NCBI RefSeq assembly: GCF_009184865.1
Contig: NZ_CP045096.1
Location: forward strand, 1,426,001-1,490,000
Origin: Streptomyces phaeolivaceus
Lineage (GTDB): Bacteria > Actinomycetota > Actinomycetes > Streptomycetales > Streptomycetaceae
Direction of reading: 5' to 3'
DNA: 64,000 nt
Position numbers and translations under genes: made by a program. The stretch's first letter is position 1. Each line of letters begins with the position of its first letter. Below are positions 2,587-62,240 of this stretch, piece after piece. Under the pieces are notes generated by a model. That model saw only the letters and a list, made by a program, of their open reading frames with translations, was not told the DNA's origin and made no database searches.

Positions 2587-2605
2587 GGCGCGAGGAACTG
2601 CGCGA
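2587..2605 (-). repeat. Dispersed intergenic repeat, copy 1
   Basis: Minus-strand reading is TCGCGCAGTTCCTCGCGCC, one base different from the core at 30043, 52825 and 62126. It is preceded by a GGTGGGGG block and followed by a small GGGGC/GCCCC hairpin. It sits between the regulator stop (2646) and the barstar start. Confidence 0.85.
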
Positions 2606-2645
2606 TCAACCCCCACCTACCCGCACCCGCCCACCCAGCAGAGCG

Positions 2646-3665
2646 TCACGCCCCATCAGGATCCGCCCGATTCATGGCCGGCCGAGGCGTCTGCCCGGCC
2701 ATCAGCAGATAGTCCGCCGCGGACGTGTCCGTGACGAGGCTGGTCACCAGCCCCGACCGCAGCACGGCGTCGATCGCGGCGGCCTTCCGCTGCCCGCCCG
2801 CGATCGCGACGACCTCGGGGATACGGCGGAGCTGATCGGCCTTGACCGTGATGCACCGCTCGCCGAGGTCCCGCCCGACCCGGCGGCCGTCGGCGTCGAA
2901 GAGGTGCGCGGACATCTCGGCGGCGACCCCGAGCGAGGCGTAGTGGCCGCGCTCCTCGTCGCTGAGCATGTCGTGCACCGTGGAGATCCCGGCCTCCCAG
3001 GAGCCGATGGAGACACAGGCGACCGTGACCTTGTCGAAGTACTCGAAGGCCCGCGCGATCCCGGTCTGGTTGCGCAGCGCGGCGGCGGTGGCCGCGTCCG
3101 GCAGCAGCATCGGCGCGTAGATGGGGTGGGCGTCGCCGCCCGACACCTGCGCGGCCCGCCGTACCGCCTCGACCGAGCCGCGCTCGGCGGTCCCGGCGTC
3201 GTACACGCCCGTCAGCTGCACCACCGTGCAGGGCGGCAGCCGGTCGAGGGCCGCCGCCATGTGGATGGTGGAGCGGCCCCAGGCGAGGCCGAGGATGTCG
3301 CCCTCGGTGACCAGTTCGCCGAGCAGGTCCGCGGCGACCTCACCGAGGTTCTCCGGGTCGGGCGACTCCTCGGCGTCGGCCGGGGACTCGACGACCACGG
3401 CGTGCCGGAGCCCGTACCGGGCGCGCAGCGCGTCGGAGCGCTCGGCGTCCAGTTCCGCGGGGACGCGGATCTCGATACGTACGAGATCCCGTTCGAGAGC
3501 GGTCTCCAGGACCCGGGCCACCTTGAAGCGGCTCACGCCGAACTCCTCGGCGATCTGGATCTTGGACTTGCCCTCTAGGTAGAAACGGCGGGCCATGGCC
3601 GCCGCCTGAACCAGCTCAGCGGGTCCCATCCGCATGGCTGACCGGCCCGCCGACATACCCGACAC
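2646..3665 (-). CDS. SorC/DeoR-type sugar-binding transcriptional regulator
   Basis: 339 aa from GTG 3665. An N-terminal HTH (FYLEGKSKIQIAEEFGVSR, about 28-46) is followed by a SorC-type sugar-phosphate-binding effector domain including GDILGLAWGRS. I prefer GTG 3665 because GTGAGGAG sits six bases upstream. The longer frame from GTG 3689 (347 aa) has no ribosome binding site, and ATG 3671 has its SD at zero spacing. Such regulators bind phosphorylated sugars. Proximity to rpe, same strand, suggests control linked to pentose phosphate metabolism, but this is inference. An inverted repeat at 3742-3760 may be its operator. Confidence 0.85.
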   Translation of the reverse strand: MSGMSAGRSAMRMGPAELVQAAAMARRFYLEGKSKIQIAEEFGVSRFKVARVLETALERDLVRIEIRVPAELDAERSDALRARYGLRHAVVVESPADAEESPDPENLGEVAADLLGELVTEGDILGLAWGRSTIHMAAALDRLPPCTVVQLTGVYDAGTAERGSVEAVRRAAQVSGGDAHPIYAPMLLPDAATAAALRNQTGIARAFEYFDKVTVACVSIGSWEAGISTVHDMLSDEERGHYASLGVAAEMSAHLFDADGRRVGRDLGERCITVKADQLRRIPEVVAIAGGQRKAAAIDAVLRSGLVTSLVTDTSAADYLLMAGQTPRPAMNRADPDGA

Positions 3666-3741
3666 GGTCATCTCCTCACTGCTCTTCACACATGGATACG
3701 CCGTTCATCCTTGCAGATCCGACGTTTTCGATCAGCCCGAA

Positions 3742-3760
3742 GGAACGTCGTTCACGTTCC
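3742..3760. promoter_or_regulatory. Inverted repeat upstream of the SorC-type gene, candidate operator
   Basis: GGAACGT-CGTTC-ACGTTCC has perfect 7-bp arms and a 5-bp centre, and contains the overlapping palindrome GAACG-T-CGTTC (3743-3753). It lies about 77 bp upstream of the regulator start, in the 172-bp gap after rpe. Autoregulation is the simplest reading; binding is not shown. Confidence 0.45.
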
Positions 3761-3837
3761 CTTGTCCCTCTGGACGCACGACGTGCCCCGCCCGCCTCGG
3801 CGTTCGCACAGCCGTACGTCTCTGTCATCCCTGTCCG

Positions 3838-4524
3838 TCAGTGGCCGCAGGCCCAGCCGGCGGTTGCCGTCACGGCGTCCGCCTGGGCCCGCAGCGCGCG
3901 CACCGCCGCGGCCGGGTCGTCCGCGCCGTAGACCGCGGATCCGGCGACGAAGACATCGGCGCCCGCCTCCGCGCAGCGCTCGATGGTGGAGGCGGCGACG
4001 CCTCCGTCGACCTGGAGCCACAGGTCGAGGCCGTGCTTGCTGATCAACTCGCGGGTGCGGCGGATCTTGGGGAGCATGATGTCGAGAAAGGCCTGGCCCC
4101 CGAAGCCCGGTTCGACGGTCATGATCAGCACCATGTCGAGTTCGGGCAGCAGGTCCTCGAACGGCTCGATCGGCGTCGCGGGCCTCAGCGCCATGGAGGC
4201 CCTGGCACCCTTGGCCCGGATCTCACGGGCGAGCCGTACCGGTGCGGCGGCGGCCTCGACATGGAAGGTGACGGAACCGGCACCCGCTTCCACGTACTGG
4301 GGCGCCCACCGATCGGGGGCCTCGATCATCAGATGGCAGTCCAGCGGCGTCTCCGTCGCGCGGGCCAGGGACTCCACGACCGGCACACCGAGCGTGAGGT
4401 TCGGGACGAAATGGTTGTCCATCACGTCTACATGGAGCCAGTCTGCCCCTTCGACCGCCTTCGCCTCGTCGGCGAGACGGGCGAAGTCGGCGGAGAGGAT
4501 GCTTGGGTTGATCTGCGCGGCCAT
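3838..4524 (-). CDS. rpe: Ribulose-phosphate 3-epimerase
   Basis: 228 aa, full length. Interconverts ribulose 5-phosphate and xylulose 5-phosphate in the cytosolic pentose phosphate pathway. Seen: NPSILSADF at the N-terminus, metal-site segments HVDVMD (31-36) and DCHLM (62-66), EPGFGGQ in the phosphate loop and VDGGV near the C-terminus. Start ATG 4524 gives [11 protein letters not shown], the usual family opening. It is followed on the same strand by the SorC-type regulator and is divergent from the MMPL gene, with 95 bp between their starts. Confidence 0.96.
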
Positions 4525-4619
4525 GGGCCAAGCCTGCCATGCCCGCCGGGGGTTGCGGGCATCGGTCTCGGGTGGGGACGGTGGTATCTCGGCCGCGGGG
4601 CACGGTTCTGGAGGTCGGT

Positions 4620-6767
4620 ATGACAGGCAACCGGGGCATCGGGCACCTCGTCTGCGGGCGGCGGGCCAAGTGGGTCGTGCTGGGACTGTGGCTGGTGGTG
4701 CTGTTCGTGGTCGCGCCGTTCGCCACGAAACTCACCGACGCGCAGGACAACGACGCGGCCTCGTGGCTGCCGGGCTCGGCCGAGTCGACCCAGGTCCTGG
4801 AGATCTCCGAGGACTTCCGGCCCGAACAGATCCCGGCGGTCGTCGTCTACGCCCGGGAGAGCGGTCTGACCGCCGAGGACCGGGCCACGATCGAGGCGGA
4901 CGTCCGGGAGCTCAAGCAGCTCACCGCCCACGGGATCATCGGCGACCAGACCCGCGGCCCGGTCTACGACCGTGCGGTGGACCCGAGGGCCGCCCAGGTC
5001 CTGGTGCCGATCACGATGGACGAGAAGGGCTGGGAACGCATCGCGCCCGCGGTCGACTCCATCCGGGACGACGTGGGCGAGGGCGACGGGATGTCCGTGC
5101 ACATCACGGGCCCTGGCGGTACGTCCGCCGACTTCTCCGAAGCCTTCGAGGGCATCGACTCCACCCTGCTGCTGTCGGCGATGGCCGTGGTCATCGTGAT
5201 GCTCCTGCTGACCTATCGCAGTCCCACCCTCATCGTGGTCCCCCTGCTCGCGGTCATCGCCGCCCTGTTCACGGCCCAGGCGCTGATCTATCTGCTGGCC
5301 GAACACACCGGCTTGACCGTGAACGGCCAGAGCGCGGGCATCCTCACCGTCCTCGTCTTCGGCGCGGGCACCGACTACGCCCTGCTGCTGGTGGCCCGCT
5401 ACCGCGAGGAGCTGCGCCGTCACGAGGACCGCCACGAGGCGATGGCCCTCGCCCTGCACCGGGCGGGCCCGGCCGTGCTGGCGTCCGGCGCGACGGTCGT
5501 GCTGAGCATGCTGGTGCTGCTGGCCGCCGAGATGAACTCGACGAGCGGGCTCGGCCCGGTGGCGGCCATCGGCGTCGCGGTCGCGCTGCTGGCGATGATG
5601 ACGCTGTTCCCCGCCCTGCTGGTGATCTTCGGCCGCTGGGTCTTCTGGCCGGTGATCCCGCACCTCGGCAGCGCCGACCCGACCGAGAGCGGTGTGTGGG
5701 CGCGGATGGGCCGCCGTTTCTCCCATCGGCCCCGCACGGTCTGGGTCGCCACGGCCGCCGCCCTCGCCCTGTGCTCGCTGGGCCTGATCCAGCTCCGCGC
5801 GGAGGGCATCAGCAACGCGGACGCCTTCACCGGCAAACCGGACTCGATCGTCGGCCAGGAGATCTCCGCACGCTACTTCCCGGCGGGCAGCGGCGACCCC
5901 CTCGTGATCATCAGCAACCAGGGACAGGCCCGGGAGGTCGGCCGTGTCGTCGCCGACACGGAAGGTGTCGTCGCGGACTCGCTCGGCCTGCCGCCCGGCA
6001 CGAAACCCGCCCACGACGGCCAGGTCCTCTTCGAGGCCACCCTGTCCGACCCCGCCGACAGCGAGGCCGCGAAGCAGACCGTGGAACGGGTCCGCGACGC
6101 CGTCCACGAAGTGCCGGACGCCGACGCCCAGGTGGGCGGCGGTACGGCGGCCCTGCTGGACATGGACAGAGCGACCACGCACGACAACATCCTGATCATC
6201 CCGCTGGTGCTGCTCGTGGTCCTGCTGATCCTCTGCGCCCTGCTGCGCGCCCTGATCGCACCGCTCCTGCTGATCGGCACGGTCATCCTGTCCTTCGCCG
6301 CCGCGCTGGGCATCAGCGCGCTCGCGTTCAGACACATCTTCGACTACGCGGGCGAGTCGACGGACTTCCCGCTGTTCGTCTTCGTGTTCCTGGTGGCCCT
6401 GGGCATCGACTACAACATCTTCCTGACCACCCGTATCCGCGAGGAGACCGCCCAACAGGGCACCCGCAAGGCCGTGGTGACGGGCCTCGCGACGACGGGC
6501 GCGGTGATCACCTCGGCCGGTCTGGTCCTCGCCGGCACCTTCGCCGCCCTCGGCACACTCCCCATGGTCGCCTTCGCCGAGATCGGCTTCGCGGTCGCCC
6601 TGGGTGTCCTCCTGGACACCTTCATCGTGCGATCCGTGCTGGTCACCTCCCTGTTCCTGGACATCGGCCCGAAGGTGTGGTGGCCCCACCGGCTGGCCCA
6701 CGAGGACGGCGGCACCCAGCCGCCACCGCCCCCGAAGGAACCGGCCGCTACGCGACCCGGCGGATGA
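4620..6767 (+). CDS. MMPL-family (RND superfamily) membrane transporter
   Basis: 715 aa. The layout is the MmpL one: an N-terminal membrane helix, an extracytoplasmic loop, a helix block, a second loop and a second helix block. Two proton-relay Asp-Tyr pairs are visible, [10 protein letters not shown] in the first block and GIDYNIFL in the second, as known for MmpL3. Family members export lipids or small molecules using the proton gradient; the substrate here is unknown. GGAGG at 4610-4614 sits five bases before ATG 4620. The proline-rich tail ends 20 bp inside the convergent rsmB gene. Being alone on the plus strand, it is probably monocistronic. Confidence 0.9.
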
Positions 6768-8175
6768 GCGCCAGATACATCGCGTCCGTCCCGTGCAGAT
6801 GCGGCCACAGCTGTACGTCGGGCCCCTCACCCAGCGCCGGGACACCCTCCAGCAGGGGCCGCGCGTCGATCAGTTCGGCCGCGTCGCCGTACTGCTTGAG
6901 CACGTCGTCGACGACCGCGCGGGTCTCGGCGAGGTGCGGCGAACAGGTCGCGTAGCCGACGACCCCGCCGACCCGTACCGACTCCAGCGCGGTCCGCAGC
7001 AGCCCGCGCTGGAGCGGGGCGAACCCGTCCAGGTCCTCGGGCCGCCGCCGCCAGCGGGCCTCGGGCCGCCGCCGCAGCGCCCCCAGCCCCGTACAGGGCA
7101 CGTCCATCAGGACCCGGTCGAAGGACCCCGGCCGCCACGGCGGACGGGTGCCGTCGGCGGCGATCACCTGGTACGGCCCGGGATTGCCGTGCAGCGCCTT
7201 GGCGACCAGACCCGCCCGGTGCGGCTGCTTCTCGGAGGCGAGCAGTACGGCACCGCGCTCGGCGGCGAGCGCGGCGAGCAGCGCGGCCTTGCCGCCTGGC
7301 CCGGCGCACCCGTCGAGCCACGCCTTGTCGGACCCCTCCAACGGGGCGTGGGCGAGAGCGAGCGCCACGAGCTGACTTCCCTCGTCCTGCACCCCCGCGC
7401 GGCCTTCCCGTACGGCGTCCACGGCGCCCGGCTCACCGCCTTCGGAGAGCCGCACGGCGTACGGCGACCAGCGCCCCGCCACCGCGGCCTCCTCCCGGAG
7501 GAGTTCCCCGGTGGTGGACCGGCCGGGCCGGGCGACCAGGGTGACCTCGGGCCGCTCGTTGTCGGCTTCCAACAGATCCTCGATCCCGGCGCGTCCGCCG
7601 CCCAGGGAGTCCCAGAGCGCGGAGACGACCCAGCGGGGATGCGAGTGCACGACGGCGAGATGGTCCTCGGGATCGTCGTCGTAGGGCGGCGCGACCCGCT
7701 CCAGCCAGCCGTCGAGGTCATGCTGCGCGATCTTGCGCAGCACGGCGTTCACGAACTTGGCGCGCCCGTCCCCGAGCACCACCCGCGCGAGATCGACGGA
7801 GGCCGACACGGCGGCATGGGTGGGAATCCGCGTCCCCAGCAGCTGATGCGCACCGAGGCTCAGGACATCGAGCACCGGCGGGTCGACCTCGCGCAGCGGC
7901 CGGTCCACACACTCCGCGATCACCGCGTCGTAGGTGCCCTGCCGCCGCAGCGTCCCGTACACCAGCTCGGTCGCCAGCGCCGCGTCCCGCCCGTCGAACT
8001 TGTCGGGCCCCTCCTTCTCCCGCGCCCTGCGCAGCAGCGGCGGCAGAACGAGGTTCGCGTACGCGTCCCGTTCGTCGACGGCCCTGAGCGCCTCGAAGGC
8101 GAGCATGCGGACGGGGTCCTTCTGGGGACGGCGATACGGCTTGCCCGGCTTACGCGGACGGGACTGCTCACTCAC
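6748..8175 (-). CDS. rsmB: 16S rRNA m5C967-type methyltransferase (RsmB/Sun family)
   Basis: 475 aa. An N-terminal NusB-like RNA-binding domain (about 20-160) precedes a SAM-dependent methyltransferase domain. The SAM motif DGCAGPGGK, the motif IV cysteine in DVPCTGLG (C361) and the nucleophile in YATCSPH (C411) are all present. It methylates a cytosine of 16S rRNA before subunit assembly. GTG 8175 has GGAG about ten bases upstream. It lies 134 nt after fmt on the same strand, a common rsmB-fmt pairing. Its 3' end overlaps the convergent MMPL gene by 20 bp, so transcription of one crosses the other. Confidence 0.93.
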   Translation of the reverse strand: MSEQSRPRKPGKPYRRPQKDPVRMLAFEALRAVDERDAYANLVLPPLLRRAREKEGPDKFDGRDAALATELVYGTLRRQGTYDAVIAECVDRPLREVDPPVLDVLSLGAHQLLGTRIPTHAAVSASVDLARVVLGDGRAKFVNAVLRKIAQHDLDGWLERVAPPYDDDPEDHLAVVHSHPRWVVSALWDSLGGGRAGIEDLLEADNERPEVTLVARPGRSTTGELLREEAAVAGRWSPYAVRLSEGGEPGAVDAVREGRAGVQDEGSQLVALALAHAPLEGSDKAWLDGCAGPGGKAALLAALAAERGAVLLASEKQPHRAGLVAKALHGNPGPYQVIAADGTRPPWRPGSFDRVLMDVPCTGLGALRRRPEARWRRRPEDLDGFAPLQRGLLRTALESVRVGGVVGYATCSPHLAETRAVVDDVLKQYGDAAELIDARPLLEGVPALGEGPDVQLWPHLHGTDAMYLALIRRVA

Positions 8176-8309
8176 GAAAAAGGTGCTCCGGATACGGGAC
8201 GAGATACCACGCCCAGAGTACGCCGCGGGTGCGGACAGCCGGGCGTCGGCCGCAGGGGCCTGAGGACATGGTGGTGGGGGTGGGGCGGGGGCGTCTCCCG
8301 TCCCCCCGA

Positions 8310-9242
8310 TCAGTCGCCGACGGACTCCCCCGACTCGATCCGCACCCCGCGCGCCCAGTCGGCGGCCCGCATCGGCTTCTTGCCCTGCGCCTGCACCCAG
8401 AGCAGTTCCACGGCGTACGACCCGGTGCCGACGTGGATGTGGTTCTTGCCGACCTCCAGCGCCCCCGGGGCGAGTTCGGTCCGCTCGGGCACGGGTGTGA
8501 CCTGGATGAGCTTCAGCCGTTCACCGCGGAACGTCGTCCAGGCGCCCGGCGCGGGCGTGCAGCCGCGCACCACCCGGTCGACGCGCAGCGCGGGGGCGGC
8601 CCAGTCGATCCTCGCGTCGTCCACGGTGATCTTCGGCGCGAGGGTGATCCCGTCGCCGGGCTGGGGCACGGCCTTCAGGGTTCCGTCCTCGATCCCGTCC
8701 ATCGTGGCGGCGAGCAGCCCGGAACCCGCGAAGGCGAGCCGGGTGAGCAGGTCGCCGCTGGTGTCGGTCGGCCGGATCACCTCGGTGACCGTCCCGTACA
8801 ACGGCCCGGAGTCGAGCCCTTCCTCGATCAGGAAGGTGGACGCCCCGGTGATCTCGTCCCCCGCCATGATCGAGTGCTGCACGGGGGCCGCGCCCCGCCA
8901 GGCGGGCAGCAGCGAGAAGTGCAGATTGACCCACCCGTGCGCGGGCACGTCGAGGGCGACACGCGGCAGGAGGGCGCCGTAGGCGACGACCGGGCAGCAG
9001 TCGGGCGCGATCTCCCGGAGCCGCGCGAGGAAGTCCTCGTCCCGGGGCCGGTGCGGCTTCAGCACCTCGATGCCCGACTCCTCGGCCCGCTGCGCCACCG
9101 GGCTGGCTACCAGCCGCCGCCCCCGCCCCGCCGGAGCGTCCGGCCGCGTCACGACCGCGGCCACCTCATGCCTCCCCGACGCGATCAACGCGTCCAGCGC
9201 GGGAACAGCGACCTCTGGGGTACCAGCGAAGACAAGCTTCAT
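8310..9242 (-). CDS. fmt: Methionyl-tRNA formyltransferase
   Basis: 310 aa. Transfers a formyl group from 10-formyl-THF to initiator Met-tRNA. Seen: [17 protein letters not shown], the hydrolase-fold active region [15 protein letters not shown], and the catalytic Asp context EEGLDSGP. The C-terminal OB-like domain follows at about 205-310. ATG 9242 begins the canonical MKLVFAGTP, which fixes the start although only a distant GAGAGG is seen. First gene of a probable fmt-rsmB operon. Confidence 0.96.
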
Positions 9243-10173
<931 letters not shown>

Positions 10174-10184
10174 CCGACTCCCCC

Positions 10185-13804: not shown

Positions 13805-14044
13805 AACGCTCCCTGGGGTTGCAGCGGCTGCTGGCTGATCATTGGCGGACGTGCTCGGGGGCTGCGCCCGGCGTCGTCCGAGAACAGTTTATCGGTCGGG
13901 CTCCGCCACCGGGTCACCTGTCTCGCCACTCGGGAGCCCTGTGACCTGCGGCACGTGCATTCTGCCCAATGGCCGTCGCTGTCCGCCAGGGTCGCCACGC
14001 CCCAATGTGCGAGGTTCCAACAAGACGTGACGCGAATGGCACTG

Positions 14045-29923: not shown

Positions 29924-30042
29924 GTGCCGAGCGTATGAGCTCCGCTGGTGGGGCGCCGGTCGAGCGGGGCCGAGTGGGGGCTCTGGGCGGTTACAGGGGT
30001 GCGGCCAGGGGTTGTGTGCCGTCCGCGAGCCGGTGGGGCTTC

Positions 30043-30061
30043 TCGCGCAGTTCCCCGCGCC
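30043..30061 (+). repeat. Dispersed intergenic repeat, copy 2
   Basis: Exact core TCGCGCAGTTCCCCGCGCC, preceded by CCGGTGGGG (30030-30038). Its 3' half is one arm of the hairpin at 30054-30076, so the repeat supplies the terminator for the P-loop gene. Confidence 0.9.
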
Positions 30062-30076
30062 TCTTCGGGGCGCGGG
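30054..30076 (-). terminator. Terminator of the P-loop gene, built from the repeat
   Basis: CCCGCGCC and GGCGCGGG, perfect 8-bp arms with a 7-nt loop, 17 nt past the stop at 30093. Confidence 0.7.
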
Positions 30077-30092
30077 CTTCAGTGCGGGGTGG

Positions 30093-31061
30093 TCACCACT
30101 TCGGGGGGCTGGCGATCGACCTTGCCAGGACCTCGTCCAGGACCCTCGCCGTGGCCGGGACATCCAGCTGGGAGTTGTCGATGATCGGCAGTCCCGAGCC
30201 GTACCAGCCCGCCATCCGGCCGTGGATGCGGGCCACCTCTTCGTCGGTGAGACGGCGATTGCCCGAGCGCTCGGCGTTGCGTTCGAGGACAATCTCCAGG
30301 CCCGGCAGAAGGACGACGGGCAGCAGGCCGGGCCCGACGTGCCGCTTCCAGCCACCGAGGCCGACGACCGGGCGGTCGGGGAACACGGCGTCGTCGAGGA
30401 TGCAGGAGATGCCGTTGGCCAGGAAGTTCCGGGCGGAGAAGCCGCAGGTGCGGCGGGCGAGACGATACTGCGCCTCGGAGTTGTCGTTCCAGCCGGACTG
30501 CGGGTCCGCGAAGCCGGAACGCACCCACTCGCGTACGTCGTCCAGGCTGATGTGCGCGGTGGGCACCCGGCGGTGGTCCGCCCAGTACTTGGCGACGCTG
30601 GTCTTGCCCGCTCCGGCGGGCCCGATGAGCAGGACCGCGAGCGTGGTGGTCGTGACGTCCGGCGCGCCCGTGGCGGGCGGCGGCATGGTGACCGGGCCGC
30701 CCGGCGGCAGTTGCACGTGTCCGGTGGTGTCGCGCGGGATCCCGGGCTGCTGCGGGGCCGAGGTGTGCGGATGACCGGGGCTGCCGGCGAAGCCGGGCGC
30801 GGGCGGCGGCGCCGGGACGGGTGGGCCGGCCGGTGAGGGCGGGGCCATGGGCGCGGGCGGGGGCGGCGGCACGGGGCCGGGGTGCGTGCCCGGGGGCGGC
30901 GGGTGGCCGGCGCCCGGGTTCCCCGGAGGGTTCGGGCCGGGCGCTCCCGGGTGCGGAGGGGCCGGGTGTCCCTGCTGGTTCACGGGCGGCGACCAAGGGG
31001 CCGCCGGGTCCTGCCCCGGCCGATGGGGCGGCGGCAGCGGAGCTCCCACTGCGTGCTGCAT
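30093..31061 (-). CDS. P-loop ATP-binding protein with long proline-rich N-terminus
   Basis: 322 aa. The first ~130 residues are proline, glycine and alanine rich and probably disordered. A kinase-like domain follows with Walker A GPAGAGKTS (about 146-154), then SLDDVREWVRSG. The later segment VLERNAERSGNRRLTDEEVARIH resembles small nucleoside- or RNA-kinase-like AAA proteins. Substrate unknown. ATG 31061. It lies between aroB and the M24 peptidase on the same strand, a position also found in S. coelicolor (SCO1493, from memory). Confidence 0.8.
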   Translation of the reverse strand: MQHAVGAPLPPPHRPGQDPAAPWSPPVNQQGHPAPPHPGAPGPNPPGNPGAGHPPPPGTHPGPVPPPPPAPMAPPSPAGPPVPAPPPAPGFAGSPGHPHTSAPQQPGIPRDTTGHVQLPPGGPVTMPPPATGAPDVTTTTLAVLLIGPAGAGKTSVAKYWADHRRVPTAHISLDDVREWVRSGFADPQSGWNDNSEAQYRLARRTCGFSARNFLANGISCILDDAVFPDRPVVGLGGWKRHVGPGLLPVVLLPGLEIVLERNAERSGNRRLTDEEVARIHGRMAGWYGSGLPIIDNSQLDVPATARVLDEVLARSIASPPKW

Positions 31062-50043: not shown

Positions 50044-52605
<2,562 letters not shown>

Positions 52606-52824
52606 GAGGACTCCTCGTGCGCGATCCGGGTCCCCCGGTCAGGCTCCGGAGCACCCATGGTAGCGATCCCGCGCCCCGGGATCGCCTTCAGGCCACTGTG
52701 AGGGCGGTCTACCTGTGCAACGCGAGGGGCGCGTGGCGGATTCCGGGGGCCGTGGCGGGGGTGCGGCAGGGGTGTGCGTCGGGGGTGTGCGGTGGTTGGT
52801 TCGGTGCGGGTCGGGTGGGGGTGC

Positions 52825-52843
52825 TCGCGCAGTTCCCCGCGCC
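52825..52843 (+). repeat. Dispersed intergenic repeat, copy 3
   Basis: Exact core TCGCGCAGTTCCCCGCGCC preceded by CGGGTGGGGGTGC and followed by CCTCCGGGGCGCG, which folds back on the core. Confidence 0.9.
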
Positions 52844-52864
52844 CCTCCGGGGCGCGCCCTCCGG

Positions 52865-52920
52865 GGCGCGCGATACGGGGCGCGCGATACAGGGCGCGCG
52901 ATACAGGGCGCGCGATACGG
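52865..52920 (+). repeat. Tandem repeat, four copies of a 14-bp unit
   Basis: Unit GGCGCGCGATAC(G/A)G with exact 14-bp spacing; the four GATAC words start at 52872, 52886, 52900 and 52914. Each unit contains the self-complementary GCGCGC. Just upstream of the apt terminator. Confidence 0.9.
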
Positions 52921-52932
52921 GGGCGTGCAACG

Positions 52933-52988: not shown

Positions 52989-53528
52989 TCAGACCGTGAT
53001 CAGGGCCTCCAGCGGGGCCCCGGCCAGTGCGGATTCCAGGCGCCGGCGGCCCGGCAGGAAGGACAGTTCCATCAGGACCGCGACACCGGCGACCTCGGCG
53101 CCCGCGCGGCGGATCAGCTGGAGGGAGGCCTCGGCGGTGCCGCCGGTGGCGAGGACGTCGTCGATGACCATGACACGGTCGCCCGCGGCCAGGTCCTCGG
53201 CGTGCACCTCGATCTCGGCGGAGCCGTACTCCAGGTCGTAGGTCTGGCTGAGCGTGGCTCCGGGGAGCTTGCCCGCCTTGCGTACGGGGATGAAGCCGAC
53301 GCCCGCGCGGACGGCGGCCGGGGCGCCCAGGATGAAGCCCCGGGCCTCCAGGCCGACGATCTTCGTGGCGCCGTGCCGCACGGTCAGCTCCGCCAGCGCG
53401 TCCGTCAGCGCGGTGAACGCCGCCGGGTCGGCCAGCAGCGGGGTGATGTCCTTGAACAGCACGCCCGGCTCGGGGTAGTCCGCGACATCGCGGATACGGC
53501 TGAGCAGCAGCTCCTTGACGTCCGTCAT
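52989..53528 (-). CDS. apt: Adenine phosphoribosyltransferase
   Basis: 179 aa. Salvages adenine with PRPP to AMP. PRPP loop VMVIDDVLATGGTAEA (about 119-134) and GLEARGFILGAP are present. ATG 53528 overlaps the secF stop by 4 nt. The order secD-secF-apt-relA is widely conserved in actinobacteria and other Gram-positives. A perfect hairpin ends the gene. Confidence 0.96.
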   Translation of the reverse strand: MTDVKELLLSRIRDVADYPEPGVLFKDITPLLADPAAFTALTDALAELTVRHGATKIVGLEARGFILGAPAAVRAGVGFIPVRKAGKLPGATLSQTYDLEYGSAEIEVHAEDLAAGDRVMVIDDVLATGGTAEASLQLIRRAGAEVAGVAVLMELSFLPGRRRLESALAGAPLEALITV

Positions 53529-54623: not shown

Positions 54624-56411
54624 TCAGGCCTCCTTCGGGTCGGCGGGGACGGAACGGCGGGTGCGGCGCAGCGGCGGCCGGGCGCCCAGTCGCTTCGGGT
54701 CGAGACCGGACCAGCTGTGGCCGTTGCCGAAGAACTTCGTGCGGGCCAGCAGCGTGAGCAGCGGCTTCGTGAAGAAGAAGACCACGACGACGTCGAGCAG
54801 GGTGGTCAGACCCAGCGTGAACGCGAAGCCCTGGACCTTGCCGACGGTGACGATGAAGAGCACCGCGGCGGAGAGGAACGACACGAAGTCGGAGACCAGG
54901 ATCGTGCGCCGGGCGCGCGGCCAGGCCCGCTCGACGGCCGGGCGCAGCGAACGCCCTTCGCGGATCTCGTCCCGTACGCGTTCGAAGTACACGATGAACG
55001 AGTCCGCCGTGATACCGATCGCGACGATCGCGCCGCAGACCGCCGGGAGGTTCAGCGCGAAGCCGATGGCCGGGCCGAGCAGGGCCATGAGCACATAGGT
55101 CAGGGCCGCGGAGACCAGCAGCGAGGCGATGGCGATCACCGACAGGCCGCGGTAGTAGACGATCAGGTAGATCATGACCAGTGCCAGACCGATCGCGCCG
55201 GCGATCAGACCGGCGTGCAGCTGGTCGTCACCGAGCGCGGGGCTGACGGTGTTGACGCTGGACTCCTTGAACGTCAGCGGGAGCGCGCCGTACGACAGCA
55301 TGTTGGCGAGGTTCTGGGCCTCCTCCTGCGTGAAGCTGCCGGAGATCTCGGCCTTGCCGCCGGTGACCGCCGCCTGCACGTAGGGGTGGGAGACGACCTC
55401 GTCGTCGAGGACGATCGCGAACTCGTTCTGCGGGGAGGTCTGGGTCGCCAGCTGGCCGGTGATGTCGGCGAACTTCTTCTCACCCTTGGAGTCGAAGTCC
55501 ATGACGACCTGCCAGCCGGTGCCGCTCTGCGTGTCGAGCAGCGCCTGGGCCTTCTCGACCTCGGTGCCGTCGACACCGACCGGGCCGAGCACGAACTTGC
55601 TCCAGCTGCCGTTGTCCTCGCCACAGGCCACGACCACGTCGCTGGTCTTGCCCTTGCCGGCCTCGGCGCGCTGCTTCGGGTCGTTGCAGTCGAGGGCGGC
55701 GAACTTGGCCTGGAGCGCCTGGGTCTCCGCGTCGACGCTGGGGCTCGCCGACGGCGAGGTGCTGTCGGAGGCCTTGGCGGACGCCGAGCCGCTGCCGGAG
55801 GGCGTGGGGTCGGCCTTCAGCGCGTCGGTGAGCGCACGGCCCTGGGACGTGGCGGAGGACGACGGGCTGGCGGAGTCACCTGACTCGGGCGAGGTCGCCT
55901 CGTCCTTGTCCTCGGACTTTCCGTCGGAGCTCGACGGGCTCGGCGAGCCGCTGCCACTGGCGCTGGTGCTCGGCGAGGCGCTCGGCGTCTGGGTCGCGCC
56001 GGTACCGACCTGGCTCTGCAGGACCGGACGGAAGTACAGCTTCGCGGTGGTGCCGACCTGATCCCTGGCCTCTTCGGAATCCGTGCCCTTGGGAATGTTG
56101 ACAATGATGTTCTCATTGCCCTGGGTCTGGACCTCCGCCTCGGACACGCCCAGACCGTTGACACGGCGGTTCATGATCTCGACCGCGGTGTCCATGTTGG
56201 TCTTGTTGATCGCGTTGGGCTGGCCGGGCTCGTTGATCGCCGTCAACGTGATGCTCGTACCACCGGCGAGGTCGATGCCGAGACGCGGTGTGGTGTGTCC
56301 GGAGGCGAACATTCCCCCGGTGAGCGCCACAAGGGCGATCAGGATGAGGGCCAGCGCGCGCCCAGGCTTGCTCTGGGCGCTCGCGCTCCGGCCCTTCTTC
56401 GGTGCTGCCAC
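54624..56411 (-). CDS. secD: Protein translocase subunit SecD with Ser-rich insertion
   Basis: 595 aa. Six helices; the large extracytoplasmic P1 domain follows helix 1 (LGIDLAGGTSITL). Residues about 138-228 are an inserted low-complexity run rich in Ser, Pro, Ala, Asp and Glu within P1. The membrane core is normal (GITADSFIVYFERVRDE, AGAIGLALVMIYL). Family function: proton-driven pulling of exported proteins. GTG 56411. First of the secD-secF-apt chain; yajC ends 133 nt upstream. Confidence 0.96.
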   Translation of the reverse strand: MAAPKKGRSASAQSKPGRALALILIALVALTGGMFASGHTTPRLGIDLAGGTSITLTAINEPGQPNAINKTNMDTAVEIMNRRVNGLGVSEAEVQTQGNENIIVNIPKGTDSEEARDQVGTTAKLYFRPVLQSQVGTGATQTPSASPSTSASGSGSPSPSSSDGKSEDKDEATSPESGDSASPSSSATSQGRALTDALKADPTPSGSGSASAKASDSTSPSASPSVDAETQALQAKFAALDCNDPKQRAEAGKGKTSDVVVACGEDNGSWSKFVLGPVGVDGTEVEKAQALLDTQSGTGWQVVMDFDSKGEKKFADITGQLATQTSPQNEFAIVLDDEVVSHPYVQAAVTGGKAEISGSFTQEEAQNLANMLSYGALPLTFKESSVNTVSPALGDDQLHAGLIAGAIGLALVMIYLIVYYRGLSVIAIASLLVSAALTYVLMALLGPAIGFALNLPAVCGAIVAIGITADSFIVYFERVRDEIREGRSLRPAVERAWPRARRTILVSDFVSFLSAAVLFIVTVGKVQGFAFTLGLTTLLDVVVVFFFTKPLLTLLARTKFFGNGHSWSGLDPKRLGARPPLRRTRRSVPADPKEA

Positions 56412-56544
56412 CTTCTCGTACTCCCTCTCGGGCCGCCGTGCGCGGGGTCAGCGCGGGGACGGCCATGACTGGTGTCGGGAATCCGGGCGAGAACGGCACG
56501 TGCCCGGGGCGCGGTCGGTTCTCGCTCGCACTCCCGGGACGTGA

Positions 56545-57054
56545 CTACTTCGCGTCGGACTCGCCGTCGGTCTTCTTCGGCTCGGCTTCGACGGACTTGG
56601 CGTCGTCGGCCTTCGCCTCGGCGGGCTCGTCGGCCGCGTCGTCGGACGCGTCCTTCTTGCCGAGGTCGATGGGCTTGTCGTCGGAAGCGGCGGAAGCGTC
56701 GTCGGAGGGCTCGTCGGTCTCGGTGAGGGAGGAGGCGTCGTCCGGGATGCCGTCGGACTTCAGGTCGTGCTCGATGCCGTGGACGATGCGGTTGTACTCC
56801 TCGTCGCTGAGGACGGCACCGATGGAGTTCTTGGCGAACAGCAGCTCGACGCCCGGCCCGGCGTCGAGGAGGACCGTGTCCTCGCTGACCTCCTTGACGG
56901 TCGCGTACATGCCCCCGATCGTGCGGACGCCGGAACCGGGCTGCATCTGGTTCCGCATGTCGACGGCCTGCTGCTGCTTCTTCTTGGCCGATCGGGTCAT
57001 CAGGATCATGGCCCCGATGAGCACGATGAACGGGAGGAGGGTCACGAGACTCAC
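56545..57054 (-). CDS. yajC: Preprotein translocase subunit YajC
   Basis: 169 aa, longer than E. coli YajC (110). One N-terminal membrane helix (LLPFIVLIGAMILMT), then the conserved MQPGSGVRTIGGMYATVKEV. The tail after about 100 is very acidic, rich in Asp, Ala and Ser. Accessory of the SecDF complex. GTG 57054. Candidate promoter at 57142-57171. First gene of the sec block. Confidence 0.95.
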   Translation of the reverse strand: MSLVTLLPFIVLIGAMILMTRSAKKKQQQAVDMRNQMQPGSGVRTIGGMYATVKEVSEDTVLLDAGPGVELLFAKNSIGAVLSDEEYNRIVHGIEHDLKSDGIPDDASSLTETDEPSDDASAASDDKPIDLGKKDASDDAADEPAEAKADDAKSVEAEPKKTDGESDAK

Positions 57055-57141
57055 GGGTCGGAACTTCCTTCACACGACCGCGATGGCGAGCGGCCTGATG
57101 GTTGGGGGTATGTGTGCTGCCGACAAGGGCGGCATCGGCGG

Positions 57142-57171
57142 AGTCTAAGCGAGTCCACCGTGATGGAACAA
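57142..57171 (-). promoter_or_regulatory. Candidate yajC-secDF promoter
   Basis: Minus strand TTGTTC (57171-57166), 18-nt spacer, TAGACT (57147-57142). Lies in the gap after ruvB, about 90 bp before the yajC start. Confidence 0.55.
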
Positions 57172-57228
57172 CGCACAGCATGTCACCGGGGTTCCATGCC
57201 GGGCGAGTACCGCGCCGTCACGAGACGG

Positions 57229-58299
57229 TCACGCCCCGAACAGGTCCTGTTGTCCGTTTCCGCCGGTCGTAGCGCGTGGCGGGGTGAGTCCGAGGTGGGT
57301 CCAGGCGGCGGGTGTCGCGACCCGGCCGCGGGGGGTCCGGGCGAGCAGTCCCTCGCGGACGAGGAAGGGTTCGGCGACCTCTTCGACGGTCTCGCGCTCC
57401 TCCCCCACGGCGACCGCGAGCGTGGACAGACCGACCGGTCCGCCGCCGAAGAGCTTGAGCAGGGCTTCGAGGACGCCACGGTCGAGGCGGTCGAGGCCGC
57501 GGGCGTCCACCTCGTAGACCGCGAGGGCGGCCCCGGCGATGTCGCGGGTGATGAAGCCGTCGGCCTTGACCTGCGCGTAGTCCCGTACGCGGCGCAGCAG
57601 TCGGTTGGCGATACGGGGCGTGCCGCGGGAACGGCCGGCGATCTCGGCGGCGCCGTCCGTGTCGATCTCGACGTCGAGGAGGTTCGCCGAGCGGTGGATG
57701 ACGCGCTCCAGCTCGGCGGGTTCGTAGAACTCCATGTGCGCGGTGAAGCCGAAGCGGTCGCGCAACGGCGGCGGCAGCAGTCCCGCGCGCGTGGTGGCGC
57801 CGACCAGGGTGAAGGGCGGCAGTTCCAGGGGGATCGCGGCGGCGCCGGGGCCCTTGCCGACGATCACGTCGACGCGGAAGTCCTCCATCGCCATGTACAG
57901 CATCTCCTCGGCGGGCCGGGACATGCGGTGGATCTCGTCGAGGAAGAGGACCTCGCCCTCCTGGAGGGAGGAGAGGATCGCGGCGAGGTCGCCGGCGTGC
58001 TGGATGGCGGGGCCGGAAGTGATGCGGATGGGGGCGCCCATCTCGGCCGCGATGATCATCGAGAGGGTGGTCTTGCCGAGGCCCGGGGCGCCGGAGAGCA
58101 GGACGTGGTCGGCGGTGGCCCCGCGCGCGCGTGCCGCCCGCAGCACCAGGTCGAGCTGTTCGCGGACCTTCTCCTGACCGATGAACTCGCCCAGGTCCTT
58201 GGGGCGCAGGGCGGCCTCGACGGCCTGGTCCTCACGGTCGGCGACGGAGCCCACCAGCCGGTCGGGGGCGGTGTCGTCGGTCGTGTCGTCCCAGTTCAT
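57229..58299 (-). CDS. ruvB: Holliday junction DNA helicase RuvB
   Basis: 356 aa. AAA+ motor that drives branch migration with RuvA. Walker [10 protein letters not shown] (about 69-77), Walker B FLDEIHRM, sensor GATTRAG and the C-terminal winged helix ([22 protein letters not shown]) are all present. ATG 58299. Third in ruvC-ruvA-ruvB; 95 nt after ruvA. Confidence 0.97.
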
Positions 58300-58394
58300 T
58301 GCGTGTGCCTCGGGGTCGCGGTCGGAGGGGCGGGGTGGAGTGGAGTGGCGTGGCGTGGGGCTGCGGGGAGAGCTTCGGTACGGGGGTGCGGCGG

Positions 58395-59000
58395 TCAGCG
58401 GGTTCTGTTGAGGGTCTGGAGGGCGGCCTTCAGCAACTGGCCCACCTGGGGGGCGCCTTGGGCGGCCTCCGCCTGGGGGGCCACGGCCGACACGGCCTCG
58501 TCGGCCTCGCGGGTGGCGTACCCGAGGCCGATCAGGGCGGCGTGCAGCTGGTCGCGCCAGCCCTGGGTGACCGGGGCGCCGATCGCGGGGGCGCCGACCG
58601 GCTCGCCGAGGCGATCCTTCAGCTCCAACAGCAGCTTCTGGGCGCCCTTCTTGCCGATGCCGGGGACGGCGATGAGCGCTTTCTCGTCACCGGTGGCGAC
58701 CGCTCGGCGCAGGGCGTCGGGGCTGTGCACCCCGAGCATCGCCTGGGCCAGGCGCGGGCCGACGCCGCTGGCGGTCTGGAGCAGTTCGAAGACCTGGCGC
58801 TCGTCGTCGTCCGCGAAGCCGTAGAGGGTGAGCGAGTCCTCGCGGACGACGAGGGAGGTGGCGAGCCTGGCCGGCTGTCCCTTGCGCAGCCCGGAGAGGG
58901 TGGTGGGCGTGCACTGGACCGCGATGCCGATCCCGCCCACCTCGACCACGGCGGAGTCCGGGGCGAGGGCGGCGACCGGGCCGCTGACGAAGGCGATCAT
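58395..59000 (-). CDS. ruvA: Holliday junction DNA-binding protein RuvA
   Basis: 201 aa. N-terminal OB fold ([25 protein letters not shown] opening region), two HhH motifs ([29 protein letters not shown]) and a C-terminal RuvB-binding domain. Tetramers hold the four-way junction. ATG 59000 overlaps the ruvC stop by 4 nt. Confidence 0.96.
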
Positions 59001-59536
59001 GCCGTACGGCCTTTCGATGCTTTGGCTGTGTGCAGGGCGACGGCCTGCTGGAGGCGGTTCTGCGCGGGGGCCCGCCAGATGTGGCAGATGGCGAGGGCGA
59101 GGGCGTCGGCGGCATCCGCCGGTTTCGGGGGTGCGTCGAGCCGGAGGAGCCGGGTGACCATGGCGCCGACCTGGGCCTTGTCGGCACGGCCGCTGCCGGT
59201 GACGGCGGCCTTCACCTCGCTGGGGGTGTGCAGGGCGACGGGGATGCCGCGCCGGGCGGCGCACAGCATGGCGACGGCGCCGGCCTGGGCGGTACCCATC
59301 ACCGTCCGTACGTTGTGCTGGCTGAACACCCGCTCCACGGCGACGAATTCGGGGCGGTGCTCGTCGAGCCACTGCTCGACGCCCTGCTCGATCGCGACAA
59401 GGCGGAGCCCCAACTCCGCGTCGGCGGGCGTCCGGACGACCCCGACGCCGACCATGGTGAGCTGCCGTCCGGCGACGCCCTCGACGACACCCACGCCACA
59501 CCGCGTGAGTCCGGGGTCCACCCCGAGTACGCGCAC
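58997..59536 (-). CDS. ruvC: Crossover junction endodeoxyribonuclease RuvC
   Basis: 179 aa from GTG 59536 ([14 protein letters not shown]). Resolves Holliday junctions. RNase H-fold acidic residues D7 and E68 (VAVERVF) are in place and the last pair lies in [14 protein letters not shown] 59536 is chosen over GTGs at 59539 and 59551 because GGGAGGGGGC sits just upstream at good spacing. First gene of the ruvCAB operon, 118 nt after yebC, separated by a perfect hairpin. Confidence 0.95.
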
Positions 59537-59595
59537 CACGCCCCCTCCCACTCGATCGCCTGTCCGTGCAGGCTATCTGTTGCCACCGACAACGG

Positions 59596-59630
59596 CGGCG
59601 GGCCGGTGGGTGTGTCCCACCGGCCCGCCG
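59596..59630 (-). terminator. yebC terminator
   Basis: CGGCGGGCCGGTGGG and its perfect complement, 15-bp arms with a TGTGT loop, 23 nt past the yebC stop. Confidence 0.9.
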
Positions 59631-59653
59631 GATCCGCTCGGTTCGCGGCAGCG

Positions 59654-60406
59654 CTACGCGTCGACCTTGGCCATCACGTCGTCGCTGACGTCGAAGTTGG
59701 CGAAGACGTTCTGCACGTCGTCGCTGTCCTCCAGCGCGTCGATCAGCTTGAAGATCTTCCGGGCGCCGTCCTCGTCCAGCTCGACCTGCATGGTCGGGAC
59801 GAAGTTGGCCTCGGCGGAGTCGTAGTCGAGCCCGGCCTCCTGGAGGGAGGTACGGACCGCGACCAGGTCGGTGGCCTCGCTGAGCACCTCGAAGGACTCG
59901 CCCAGGTCGTTGACCTCCTCGGCGCCCGCGTCGAGCACGACCTCCAGGACGTCGTCCTCGGACAGCTCGCCCTTGGGGACGATCACGACGCCCTTGCGGT
60001 GGAAGAGGTACGAGACGGAGCCCGGGTCGGCCATCGAGCCGCCGTTGCGGGTCATGGCGACACGGACGTCGGAGGCGGCGCGGTTGCGGTTGTCGGTGAG
60101 GCACTCGATGAGCACCGCGACGCCGTTCGGGCCGTAGCCCTCGTACATGATCGTCTCGTAGTCGGCGCCACCGGCCTCAAGACCACCGCCGCGCTTGACC
60201 GCGGAGTCGATGTTCTTGTTCGGGACCGACTGCTTCTTCGCCTTCTGGATGGCGTCGAAGAGAGTCGGGTTGCCCTCGATGTCGACGCCGCCCATCCGGG
60301 CCGCGACCTCGATGTTCTTGATGAGCTTCGCGAAGAGCTTGCCGCGCTTGGCGTCGATCACGGCCTTCTTGTGCTTCGTCGTAGCCCATTTAGAGTGGCC
60401 GGACAT
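59654..60406 (-). CDS. yebC: YebC/PmpR-family protein
   Basis: 250 aa, three-domain acidic protein. Seen: [22 protein letters not shown] start and [19 protein letters not shown]. Long called a transcriptional regulator; recent work on relatives points to a role on the ribosome at polyproline stalls. ATG 60406. Between pdxT and ruvC, a conserved actinobacterial order. Confidence 0.95.
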
Positions 60407-60454
60407 CTGCCTGTCTCCTTCGCGTTACCCAACTCCGTACGAACCCCAGAGATC

Positions 60455-61063
60455 CTACAAGGACTCCGCCGCCCGGTTCGCGCGCACCATATCGACGAAC
60501 AGCGCGTGCAGCCGGTGGTCGCCGGTCAGCTCCGGGTGGAACGACGTGGCGAGGGCGTTGCCCTGGCGTACGGCGACGATGTGGCCGTCGTGCTCGGCCA
60601 GCACCTCGGTCTCCGCGCCCACGGACTCGACCCAGGGGGCGCGGATGAAGACGCCCTCCACGGGGTCGCCCTCGACGCCCTTGACGGCGACGGCCGCCTC
60701 GAAGGACTCGTTCTGGCGGCCGAACGCGTTGCGGCGCACGATCATGTCGATGCCGCCGATGGTCTCCTGCCCCGAGCGCGGGTCGAGGATCTTGTCGGCG
60801 AGCATGATCAGGCCGGCGCAGGTGCCGTAGACGGGCAGACCGGCGCGCACGCGCGCGCGGAGGGGCTCCATCACGCCGAAGAGGACGGCCAGTTTGGAGA
60901 TGGTGGTGGACTCGCCGCCGGGGAGGACGAGGCCGTCCACCTCGGCGAGTTCCTCGGGGCGCCGCACCGGCCTGGCCACGGCGTCGGCCGCGGCCAGGGC
61001 GACGAGGTGCTCCCGTACGTCGCCCTGGAGGGCCAGGACGCCTATGACGGGGGTGTCGCTCAT
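60455..61063 (-). CDS. pdxT: Pyridoxal 5'-phosphate synthase glutaminase subunit
   Basis: 202 aa. Class I glutaminase that supplies ammonia to Pdx[13 protein letters not shown] at the N-terminus, nucleophile in [18 protein letters not shown], and the His/Glu pair in SFHPELTGD are present. ATG 61063 begins 6 nt after the pdxS stop, so the two subunits are co-expressed. Confidence 0.97.
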
Positions 61064-61069
61064 GGGTGC

Positions 61070-61987
61070 TTACCAGCCCCGGTTCGCGTAGCGCTCGGCC
61101 TCGGGGAGGGTGTCGCAGTTGATGCCGACCATGGCCTCGCCCAGGTTGCGGGAGGCGTCCGCGATGATCTTCGGGTCGTCGTAGAAGGTGGTGGCCTTCA
61201 CGATGGCGGCGGCGCGCTTGGCGGGGTCGCCGGACTTGAAGATGCCGGAGCCGACGAAGACGCCCTCGGCACCGAGCTGGCGCATCAGCGCGGCGTCGGC
61301 CGGGGTGGCCACACCGCCGGCGGAGAACAGCACCACCGGGAGCTTGCCCAGCTCGGCGACCTCCTTGACGATCTCGTACGGGGCGCGCAGCTCCTTGGCG
61401 GCGGCGTACAGCTCGTTGTTGTCGAAGCCGCGCAGCTTGGCGATCTCGTTCTTGATCTGGCGCAGGTGGCGGACGGCCTCGACGACGTTGCCGGTACCGG
61501 CCTCGCCCTTGGAACGGATCATGGCCGCGCCCTCGGCGATACGGCGCAGGGCCTCGCCGAGGTTGGTGGCACCGCAGACGAAGGGGGTGGTGAAGGCCCA
61601 CTTGTCGGAGTGGTTGACCTCGTCGGCCGGGGTGAGGACCTCGGACTCGTCGATGTAGTCGACGCCGAGGGACTGCAGGACCTGGGCCTCGACGAAGTGG
61701 CCGATGCGGGACTTGGCCATGACCGGGATGGAGACGGCCTCGATGATGCCCTCGATCATGTCCGGGTCGGACATCCGGGCCACGCCGCCGTCCTTGCGGA
61801 TGTCCGCGGGGACGCGCTCCAGGGCCATGACGGCGACCGCGCCCGCGTCCTCGGCGATCTTGGCCTGCTCGGCGTTGACGACGTCCATGATCACACCGCC
61901 CTTGAGCTGCTCGGCCATGCCGCGCTTCACGCGCGCGGTGCCGGTCTCGGGGGTCTGGGCGGTGGGGTTGGAGAGCGTGCTGGACAC
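61070..61987 (-). CDS. pdxS: Pyridoxal 5'-phosphate synthase lyase subunit
   Basis: 305 aa. TIM-barrel enzyme making PLP from ribose 5-phosphate, glyceraldehyde 3-phosphate and ammonia. Seen: [18 protein letters not shown], the phosphate-binding [14 protein letters not shown] and [16 protein letters not shown] 61987 has GAGGT eight bases upstream. First of pdxS-pdxT. Upstream lie a spaced direct repeat (62047-62064) and the 129-bp inverted-repeat element. Confidence 0.97.
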
Positions 61988-62046
61988 GGGTTTTACCTCG
62001 CTCGGGAAGGGGGTTTCTGCAATCACCGAGGAAACGCGAGGGGTGC

Positions 62047-62064
62047 GGGCCACTGCAAGGGCCA
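62047..62064 (-). promoter_or_regulatory. Spaced direct repeat before pdxS, candidate regulator site
   Basis: TGGCCC twice with 6 nt between (minus strand), 12-bp periodic, about 60-77 bp upstream of pdxS. MocR-type PdxR regulators often bind direct repeats near pdxST; no pdxR gene is in the window, so this is tentative. Confidence 0.3.
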
Positions 62065-62111
62065 ATGGGGAGGCGGTGGATCGTTTTTGTGGGGTGATGG
62101 TCATCTGCGGC

Positions 62112-62240
62112 CCGGTGGGGGCTGGTCGCGCAGTTCCCCGCGCCCCTGAAAAAGCAGGGGCTGCGCCCCGTGCTTTTTCGGCCCGAAAGGGCCGTAGGCC
62201 CTCAAGAGGCGCGGGGACCTGCGCGACCAGGCCCCACCGG
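62112..62240. repeat. 129-bp long inverted repeat built from two dispersed-repeat copies
   Basis: Left arm 62112-62144 and right arm 62208-62240 are 33 nt each, matching at 31 positions; each contains the repeat core (62126-62144 and, inverted with one change, 62208-62226). The 63-nt centre adds smaller stems: CCCCTG/CAGGGG, AAAAAGCA/TGCTTTTT, GGCCC-GAAA-GGGCC and AGGGCC-GTA-GGCCCT. The RNA would be highly structured. Could act as terminator of the 62291 gene. Confidence 0.85.

What the first reader, a model, noticed from the sequence alone, without database searches (positions are those of the whole stretch)
2587..62240. Family of dispersed intergenic repeats with core TCGCGCAGTTCCCCGCGCC
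Clear copies at 2587 (inverted, one change), 30043, 52825, 62126 and 62208 (inverted, one change), plus a split copy at 533-605. Most are preceded by GGTGGGG(G) and followed by CC(C/T)T and a GC hairpin. All lie in gaps between minus-strand genes, usually after a stop codon; at 30054 the repeat is itself the terminator arm. The conserved single-stranded part (GCGCAGTTCC) is more than a terminator needs, suggesting a protein or RNA recognition site or a mobile REP-like unit.
Basis: partly seen in the sequence, partly recalled or inferred. Interest (0 to 1): 0.72.

Follow-up and report, generated by a model that had tools for sequence, protein, structure and literature searches.

The report
Streptomyces REP-like gene-end repeat family
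Short, hairpin-prone DNA repeats are scattered by the hundred just after the ends of genes in many Streptomyces genomes; they resemble the REP repeats of other bacteria, but the usual linked mobilising enzyme was not found beside them.

Summary
The window holds five copies (0.27 expected) and its 10.2-Mb Streptomyces-type genome 493, against 0 for the reversed pattern. The loop is AGTT (type A) or a ~29-nt hairpin (type B, 81 sites). The "split copy" at 533-605 is type B. In an even 20% sample 105 of 112 copies are intergenic; elements are enriched in convergent gaps and depleted in divergent ones. Close pairs here are convergent (30 of 31); chosen loci of other genomes show divergent or tandem units. 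Copy number across 295 Streptomyces runs 0-876, and orthologous gaps are filled or empty between species. Of 11 complete copies of an IS4-family IS, 9 lie within 10 bp of a core and the others at 35 and 55 bp, a REP-like trait; relatives of the IS sit elsewhere. The linked-RAYT prediction fails in what was examined. Best reading: a REP/BIME-like family of Streptomycetaceae, probably mobile through an unidentified helper. Mobility and helper are inferred.

The parts
533..622 (-). Type B element (arm + CGCGC + ~29-nt loop + CCCCGCGCCCCT); loop motif at 558-577; follows the stop of the gene at 639-2090(-), an IMP dehydrogenase-domain protein. Outer limits approximate, by eye
2584..2645 (-). Type A single element: arm 2606-2645 abutting the stop of gene 2646-3689(-), core 2587-2605 (1 change), CCT end
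30000..30085 (+). Type A single element: arm, core 30043-30061, tail forming a GC stem with the core; tail faces the stop of the gene at 30093(-). Outer limits approximate
52782..52847 (+). Type A single element (core 52825-52843) between a phosphoribosyltransferase gene (apt by position; 52989-53528, minus) and the RelA/SpoT gene (50044-52605, minus). Outer limits approximate
62085..62290 (.). Convergent type A pair: cores 62126-62144(+) and 62208-62226(-), 63-nt spacer, outer arms; right arm carries a GGCACCTAGTGGCTCGGGGG module next to the stop of gene 62291-62836(-); PdxS-family gene (SOR_SNZ) at 61070-61987(-). Left limit approximate
62157..62169 (.). Terminator-like hairpin in the pair spacer, T-rich tail on both strands

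Best explanation
A REP/BIME-like family of short extragenic repeats of Streptomycetaceae. The unit is a half-element of about 45-65 nt (arm YGCGG-N8-10-GGYTNNT, then CGCGC, loop AGTT or a ~29-nt hairpin, then CCCCGCGCCCCT), which combines into composite units that differ between genomes. Shown: the anatomy, the placement near gene ends, the patchy high copy number, presence/absence at orthologous gaps. Inferred: units multiply as non-autonomous DNA through a helper acting in trans that reads the arm and stem; insertions inside genes and in promoter gaps are lost and those behind stop codons survive. After insertion the GC hairpins may end or protect transcripts (inferred). The helper does not look like a RAYT/TnpA_REP linked to the repeats in the genomes examined.
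For: 493 copies vs 0 control; 105 of 112 sampled copies intergenic, p=1.5e-69; 70 classified elements: 26 convergent, 37 tandem, 7 divergent vs 16/61/23% of gaps, p=3e-6. Convergent pairs 30 of 31 close neighbours; random placement gives 5.8 neighbours. Arm motif YGCGG in 91 of 112 type A, 16 of 20 type B and 8 of 10 copies (five chosen loci) of another genus vs 7.8% of intergenic controls. Copy number 0-876 across 295 genomes; 344 in the one other genus of the family sampled, 0-3 in 15 genomes of other families of the order. Types A and B rise together (0.70 given genome size). 24 of 35 element clusters, in about six gene gaps, have an orthologous site without the element in another species. 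An IS4-family IS lands in or beside the repeat (9 of 11 within 10 bp of a core, 1 in a pair spacer at 35 bp, 1 at 55 bp).
Against: No transposition event or target duplication of the repeat itself was seen; flanks at empty sites are mostly 75-90% identical, so exact ends are unresolved and deletion is not excluded. No helper found. Singles are as conserved as pairs (0.957 vs 0.954), unlike REPINs. The half-element folds little better than shuffles (median z -0.73). The relatives of the IS do not sit in the repeat (0 of 29 loci have a core), so the IS seems to read a short tail motif that the repeat offers.
Confidence: 0.55

Rival explanations
1. Classical REP/REPIN system mobilised by a RAYT (Y1 transposase) that is now lost from many genomes, too diverged to detect, or unlinked.
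For: GTGG near the foot, inverted doublets and IS targeting resemble REPs; Y1-positive genomes have more copies before size correction (median 30 vs 2, p=1e-4); the own genome has two Y1 transposases; a 3-mismatch copy lies about 150 bp past the stop of one of them (L031).
Against: Association vanishes given genome size (partial r 0.09, p 0.12); 0 cores at <=1 mismatch in 31 Y1 loci, only 1.33 expected; 876-copy G059 and 716-copy G109 have no Y1_Tnp match.
Confidence: 0.15
2. Transcription terminators or mRNA 3'-end stabilisers spread by recombination and kept by selection; pairs serve convergent genes.
For: Enriched in convergent gaps, next to stop codons; the window pair's spacer is scored as a terminator on both strands.
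Against: No orientation bias among singles in tandem gaps (11 vs 11); only 5 of 30 pairs carry an A-run/GC-stem/T-run hairpin in a strict scan; conserved loop and arm exceed a terminator's needs; 130 of 295 genomes have 0-2 copies. The Term-seq passages read for three Streptomyces mention U-rich or GC stem-loop end motifs and not this repeat, but copy numbers in those species were not counted.
Confidence: 0.2
3. Binding sites of a nucleoid, replication or segregation protein.
For: Conserved core and arm shared across two genera.
Against: Near-absence in many genomes of the same genus; no significant replication-strand bias of singles (33 of 54 in one sense).
Confidence: 0.08

Closest known systems
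REP sequences / BIMEs / REPINs with RAYT (TnpA_REP)
   Same: Hundreds of short extragenic, hairpin-prone repeats, patchy by species, gene-end placement, inverted pairs with spacers, mosaic composites, landing sites of insertion sequences (PMC1525189, abstract and passages: ISRm22, IS4 family, 10/10 in its table)
   Different: No linked RAYT found; singles as conserved as doublets (PMC3116915, passages, reports doublets more conserved); composite architecture differs between genomes; two alternative loops on one arm and stem
MITEs of a DDE insertion sequence
   Same: Non-autonomous, repeated, inverted-repeat pairs
   Different: By eye the pairs do not share the terminal repeats of the IS4-family IS found in them; no target duplication of the repeat seen
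Intrinsic bidirectional terminators
   Same: GC hairpins after stop codons; a T-tailed hairpin in the window pair
   Different: Conserved arm and loop, no orientation bias of singles in tandem gaps, absent from most gene ends sampled
DNA uptake sequences (recalled, no call)
   Same: Short repeats in high copy, often inverted pairs at gene ends
   Different: 105 of 112 intergenic, long conserved arm, patchy within one genus

Membership tests
REP/BIME | High copy number, extragenic | tested here: met
   493 copies at <=1 mismatch; 105 of 112 sampled copies intergenic
REP/BIME | Imperfect palindrome forming a hairpin | tested here: inconclusive
   arm-core stem in 92 of 111 MFE folds but median z -0.73 vs shuffles
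REP/BIME | 5' GT[AG]G tetranucleotide at the hairpin foot | tested here: inconclusive
   GTGG is in all five window copies but the arm is G-rich and no control was run
REP/BIME | Landing site of insertion sequences | tested here: met
   own genome: 9 of 11 complete IS4-family copies within 10 bp of a core, 1 at 35 bp in a spacer, 1 at 55 bp; not seen in 29 loci of relatives of the IS
REPIN | Inverted doublet as the unit | tested here: inconclusive
   own genome 30 of 31 close neighbours convergent, G128 8 of 12; other genomes divergent or tandem at chosen loci
REPIN | Doublets more conserved than singlets | tested here: not met
   0.954 vs 0.957
REPIN/REPtron | Linked RAYT (Y1) transposase | tested here: not met
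   0 cores in 31 fetched Y1 loci (1.33 expected); 7 of 19 genomes with >=250 copies have no Y1_Tnp match
Intrinsic terminator | GC stem followed by T-run | tested here: inconclusive
   present in the window pair, strict form in 5 of 30 pairs
Rfam RNA families | Match at gathering score | tested here: not met
   only Streptomyces-metK in the window, not at the repeats

The most novel reading that the evidence does not exclude
A REP-like system that runs without a RAYT: one half-element shared across Streptomycetaceae, with two interchangeable loops, mobilised by an undescribed enzyme that reads the arm and stem, and reassembled into a different composite unit in each lineage.
Probability: 0.35. 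Interest if true: 0.75.

Novelty: new variant of a known kind. Interest (0 to 1): 0.6.

Why it matters
Nearly 500 type A copies sit in this genome and up to 876 in others of a heavily used antibiotic-producing genus, and the ten paper searches made here found no description of the family. It would be a natural test of how REP-like DNA spreads without a linked RAYT, offers recombination points and IS landing sites, and may confound terminator and sRNA prediction in Streptomyces.

Tried and rejected
Strand-run idea: the place list showed only + copies from 1.9 to 3.08 Mb. Re-reading the fetched tiles found exact minus copies there (2243346, 2341040, 2354998), so the run is a listing artefact and was dropped. 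For the same reason orientations in the place lists are not used as counts.

Replication-strand bias: singles 16/14 left arm, 7/17 right arm; not significant. G-quadruplex in the arm: no more than shuffles (33 vs 36 of 112). Heterotypic pairing of the CTTCT and CTGGT bulges: 14 mixed vs 6 same among the 20 pairs with only these two; suggestive only. Autonomous copy between 1582222 and 1583332: the gene there is a SpoIIE-domain phosphatase, not a transposase. Core-under-selection test: in one close orthologue (S. europaeiscabiei, apt-rel gap) core and arm both diverge. Plasmids (11 of 72,556 records), phages (0) and viral contigs (0 exact) gave no evident carrier. Homologous-protein, structure and fold searches were not used.

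An error mended: the lower border of the 'pdxS gap' is an out-of-frame ORF (60390-61601, no Pfam match), so the lengths there include about 390 bp of the true gene 61070-61987 (SOR_SNZ); the cores counted lie in the first 310 bp of that stretch.
Full report
OBSERVATION. The core TCGCGCAGTTCCCCGCGCC occurs five times in the window at the stated places (0.27 expected, maximum 3 in 100 shuffles). The window lies in a Streptomyces-type genome of 10,175,440 bases (contig C2, 10.116 Mb, dnaA-domain gene near 5.154 Mb; kinship to named Streptomyces). The genome holds 237 + 256 = 493 copies of the 18-mer at up to one mismatch and none of the reversed pattern.

UNBIASED SAMPLE. I took 100 tiles of 20 kb, one per 100 kb, plus the window (2.064 Mb). 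They hold 112 copies at up to 2 mismatches (69 exact, 37 with one, 6 with two). With a home-made codon-usage gene caller (1,779 genes, 82% coding), 105 of 112 copies are intergenic where 17.8% of bases are (p=1.5e-69). Seven lie in called genes; some may be false gene calls. Of 82 elements (30 pairs, 52 singles), 7 in called genes and 5 at tile edges were left out; the other 70 lie 26 in convergent, 37 in tandem and 7 in divergent gaps, against 169, 644 and 242 gaps of at least 60 bases (p=3e-6). Singles show no orientation preference in tandem gaps (11 vs 11). Where the tail faces a gene's 3' end (27 of 43 singles) the median distance is 23 nt, with 18 within 35 nt; facing a 5' end (16) it is 191.5. 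In four singles (1357785, 4751389, 8249732, 8342118) the stop codon lies between the arms of a hairpin that the element forms with the last codons, e.g. GCCCCG-TAA-GGGGC (by eye).

ANATOMY. Position-wise conservation is strong from about -17 to +24 and weaker to about -45. The arm motif YGCGG is present in 91 of 112 type A copies, 16 of 20 type B copies and 8 of 10 copies of another genus (G418, five chosen loci), against 7.8% of 5,908 intergenic controls; the foot GGYTNNY is in 86 of 112, 18 of 20 and 8 of 10. The base before GCGG is a pyrimidine in 91 of 96 copies against 46% in controls, as expected if it pairs with G of CCGCG, but descent explains it too. Type B has the same arm, TCGCGC, then about 29 nt with a GCGGCGGAGCCGC hairpin, then CCCCGCGCCCCT; 81 sites at up to 2 mismatches in the genome, reversed control 5. 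Of 30 tile matches at up to 3 mismatches, 20 are intergenic. An outer module GGGCGCCTnnTGGCTCGGGGG stands upstream of 14 of 112 cores at up to 3 mismatches, mostly starting 49-52 nt before the core.

COMPOSITES. In the tiles 31 neighbouring copies lie within 400 bp: 30 convergent, 1 tandem, 0 divergent (random placement mean 5.8, maximum 15 in 300). Spacers are mosaics of small hairpins. In 20 loci chosen from place lists of five other genomes, G332 shows divergent pairs (4 of its 6 loci) with heads inward and tails beside what read by eye as stop codons, G418 convergent pairs with a GCAACTG/CAGTTGC spacer (5 of 5), and G405, G378 and G410 direct tandem units of about 68-131 bp. Most were picked because they had neighbours, so they show that the architectures exist, not their frequency. 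In 400 kb of G128, 27 copies gave 8 convergent and 4 direct neighbours within 250 bp.

DISTRIBUTION. Of 295 genomes of the genus, 234 have a match; counts run 0-876, median 6, 47 with at least 100 and 130 with 0-2. In the order, one other genus of the same family has 344; 15 genomes of other families have 0-3. Copy number rises with genome size (rho 0.42). Types A and B correlate (rho 0.76; 0.70 given genome size), with exceptions such as G156 (559 A, 0 B) and G085 (1 A, 22 B). Plasmids: 11 of 72,556 records match, all Streptomyces; phages 0; viral contigs 0 exact.

PRESENCE AND ABSENCE. Eighty named Streptomyces loci around secD, plus the window, give the apt-rel gap in 47 sequences, 3 with a core (S. 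europaeiscabiei has one too, but its gap could not be measured), and the stretch upstream of the SOR_SNZ (pdxS) gene in 72, 10 with a core (see the mended error under Tried and rejected). Of 35 element clusters, 24, in about six gene gaps, have an orthologous site without a core in another species; the four window clusters could not be tested in that run because of orientation. Species are too far apart to fix ends or duplications. Upstream of pdxS the spacer of Streptomyces sp. MNU76 (L135) is inverted relative to the window (94% identical inverted, 65% direct), with left arms that align; other own-genome spacers reach 0.94-0.95 in the better orientation, so replacement by another copy is not excluded.

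INSERTION SEQUENCE. An IS4-family IS (PF13006 + PF01609) has 11 complete copies in the genome. Nine have a core within 10 bp of one end, with the insertion in the tail (CCTGAAAAGC, CCCTAAAAGA, CCTTAAGGGC and the like); one (L290) lies inside a pair spacer 35 bp from a core; one (L291) lies 55 bp from a core, past the arm, in CCCCTTAGGC; 9 of 11 show an exact 10-bp duplication. Two further, interrupted copies also abut a core. PMC1525189 (abstract and passages) describes ISs that insert into REPs, including ISRm22 of the IS4 family, 10/10 in its table. Against a family-wide link: in 29 loci of relatives of this IS (49-84% identical) none has a core at up to 2 mismatches; several sit in a CCTTTAGGG-like motif instead.

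HELPER. Y1_Tnp (PF01797) occurs in 99 of 295 genomes. Of the 19 genomes with at least 250 copies 12 have it and 7 do not, including G059 (876) and G109 (716); the raw association (p=1e-4) disappears given genome size (r=0.09, p=0.12). No core at <=1 mismatch lies in the 31 Y1 loci fetched, of about 3.3 kb each (1.33 expected, so weak); a 3-mismatch copy lies about 150 bp past the stop of the own IS200-like gene.

LITERATURE. Ten searches of the held library: the 17-mer is in no paper; two 11-mers occur in 11 papers, of which the 10 listed look unrelated by title; word searches on Streptomyces with REP, REPIN, RAYT, MITE, intergenic repeats, stem-loops and Term-seq showed no description of this family in the listings. 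PMC6006769 and PMC2817692 have no mention of Streptomyces in the main text. PMC3116915 gives the REPIN criteria (passages). PMC2267715 surveys stem-loop families; in the passages read its high-GC Gram-positives are Corynebacterium and Mycobacterium; PMC1590033 names Streptomyces only in a reference. PMC4681348 (S. coelicolor transcript map) notes short transcripts at palindromes without naming this repeat in the passages read. Passages of Term-seq papers on S. clavuligerus, S. avermitilis and S. lividans mention U-rich or GC stem-loop end motifs, not this repeat. Subscription literature was not searched.

VERDICT. A REP/BIME-like family of Streptomycetaceae; it is not filed as REPIN because two of that family's features were tested and not met. 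Mobility is the best inference from patchy copy number and empty sites; the mechanism is open.

Noticed in passing
own genome C2, loci L289-L299: IS4-family insertion sequence (TIR CAAGGCCGTGAAGTTA, 10-bp duplications): 9 of 11 complete copies within 10 bp of a repeat core, the other two at 35 and 55 bp; relatives of it use a CCTTTAGGG-like target elsewhere.
   Followed up: yes
window about 52860-52925: Short tandem array of GGGGCGCGCGATAC-like units just downstream of the 52825 copy (by eye).
   Followed up: no
window 13809-13926 (-): Rfam Streptomyces-metK RNA (RF03063), 119.9 bits.
   Followed up: no
L177 near 4063-4180: Other GC-rich intergenic stretches beside the tandem copies (CCGTCCGGCGTTTGAGGACGAGG and GGGGGCGGAGCCCCC) that look like further repeat families; not counted.
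   Followed up: no
L135 4190-4287 vs window 62126-62226: Spacer of the pair inverted between two species at the same gene gap.
   Followed up: partly
own genome 6976971 (L031): Single IS200-like tnpA with a diverged repeat copy (3 mismatches) about 150 bp past its stop.
   Followed up: partly
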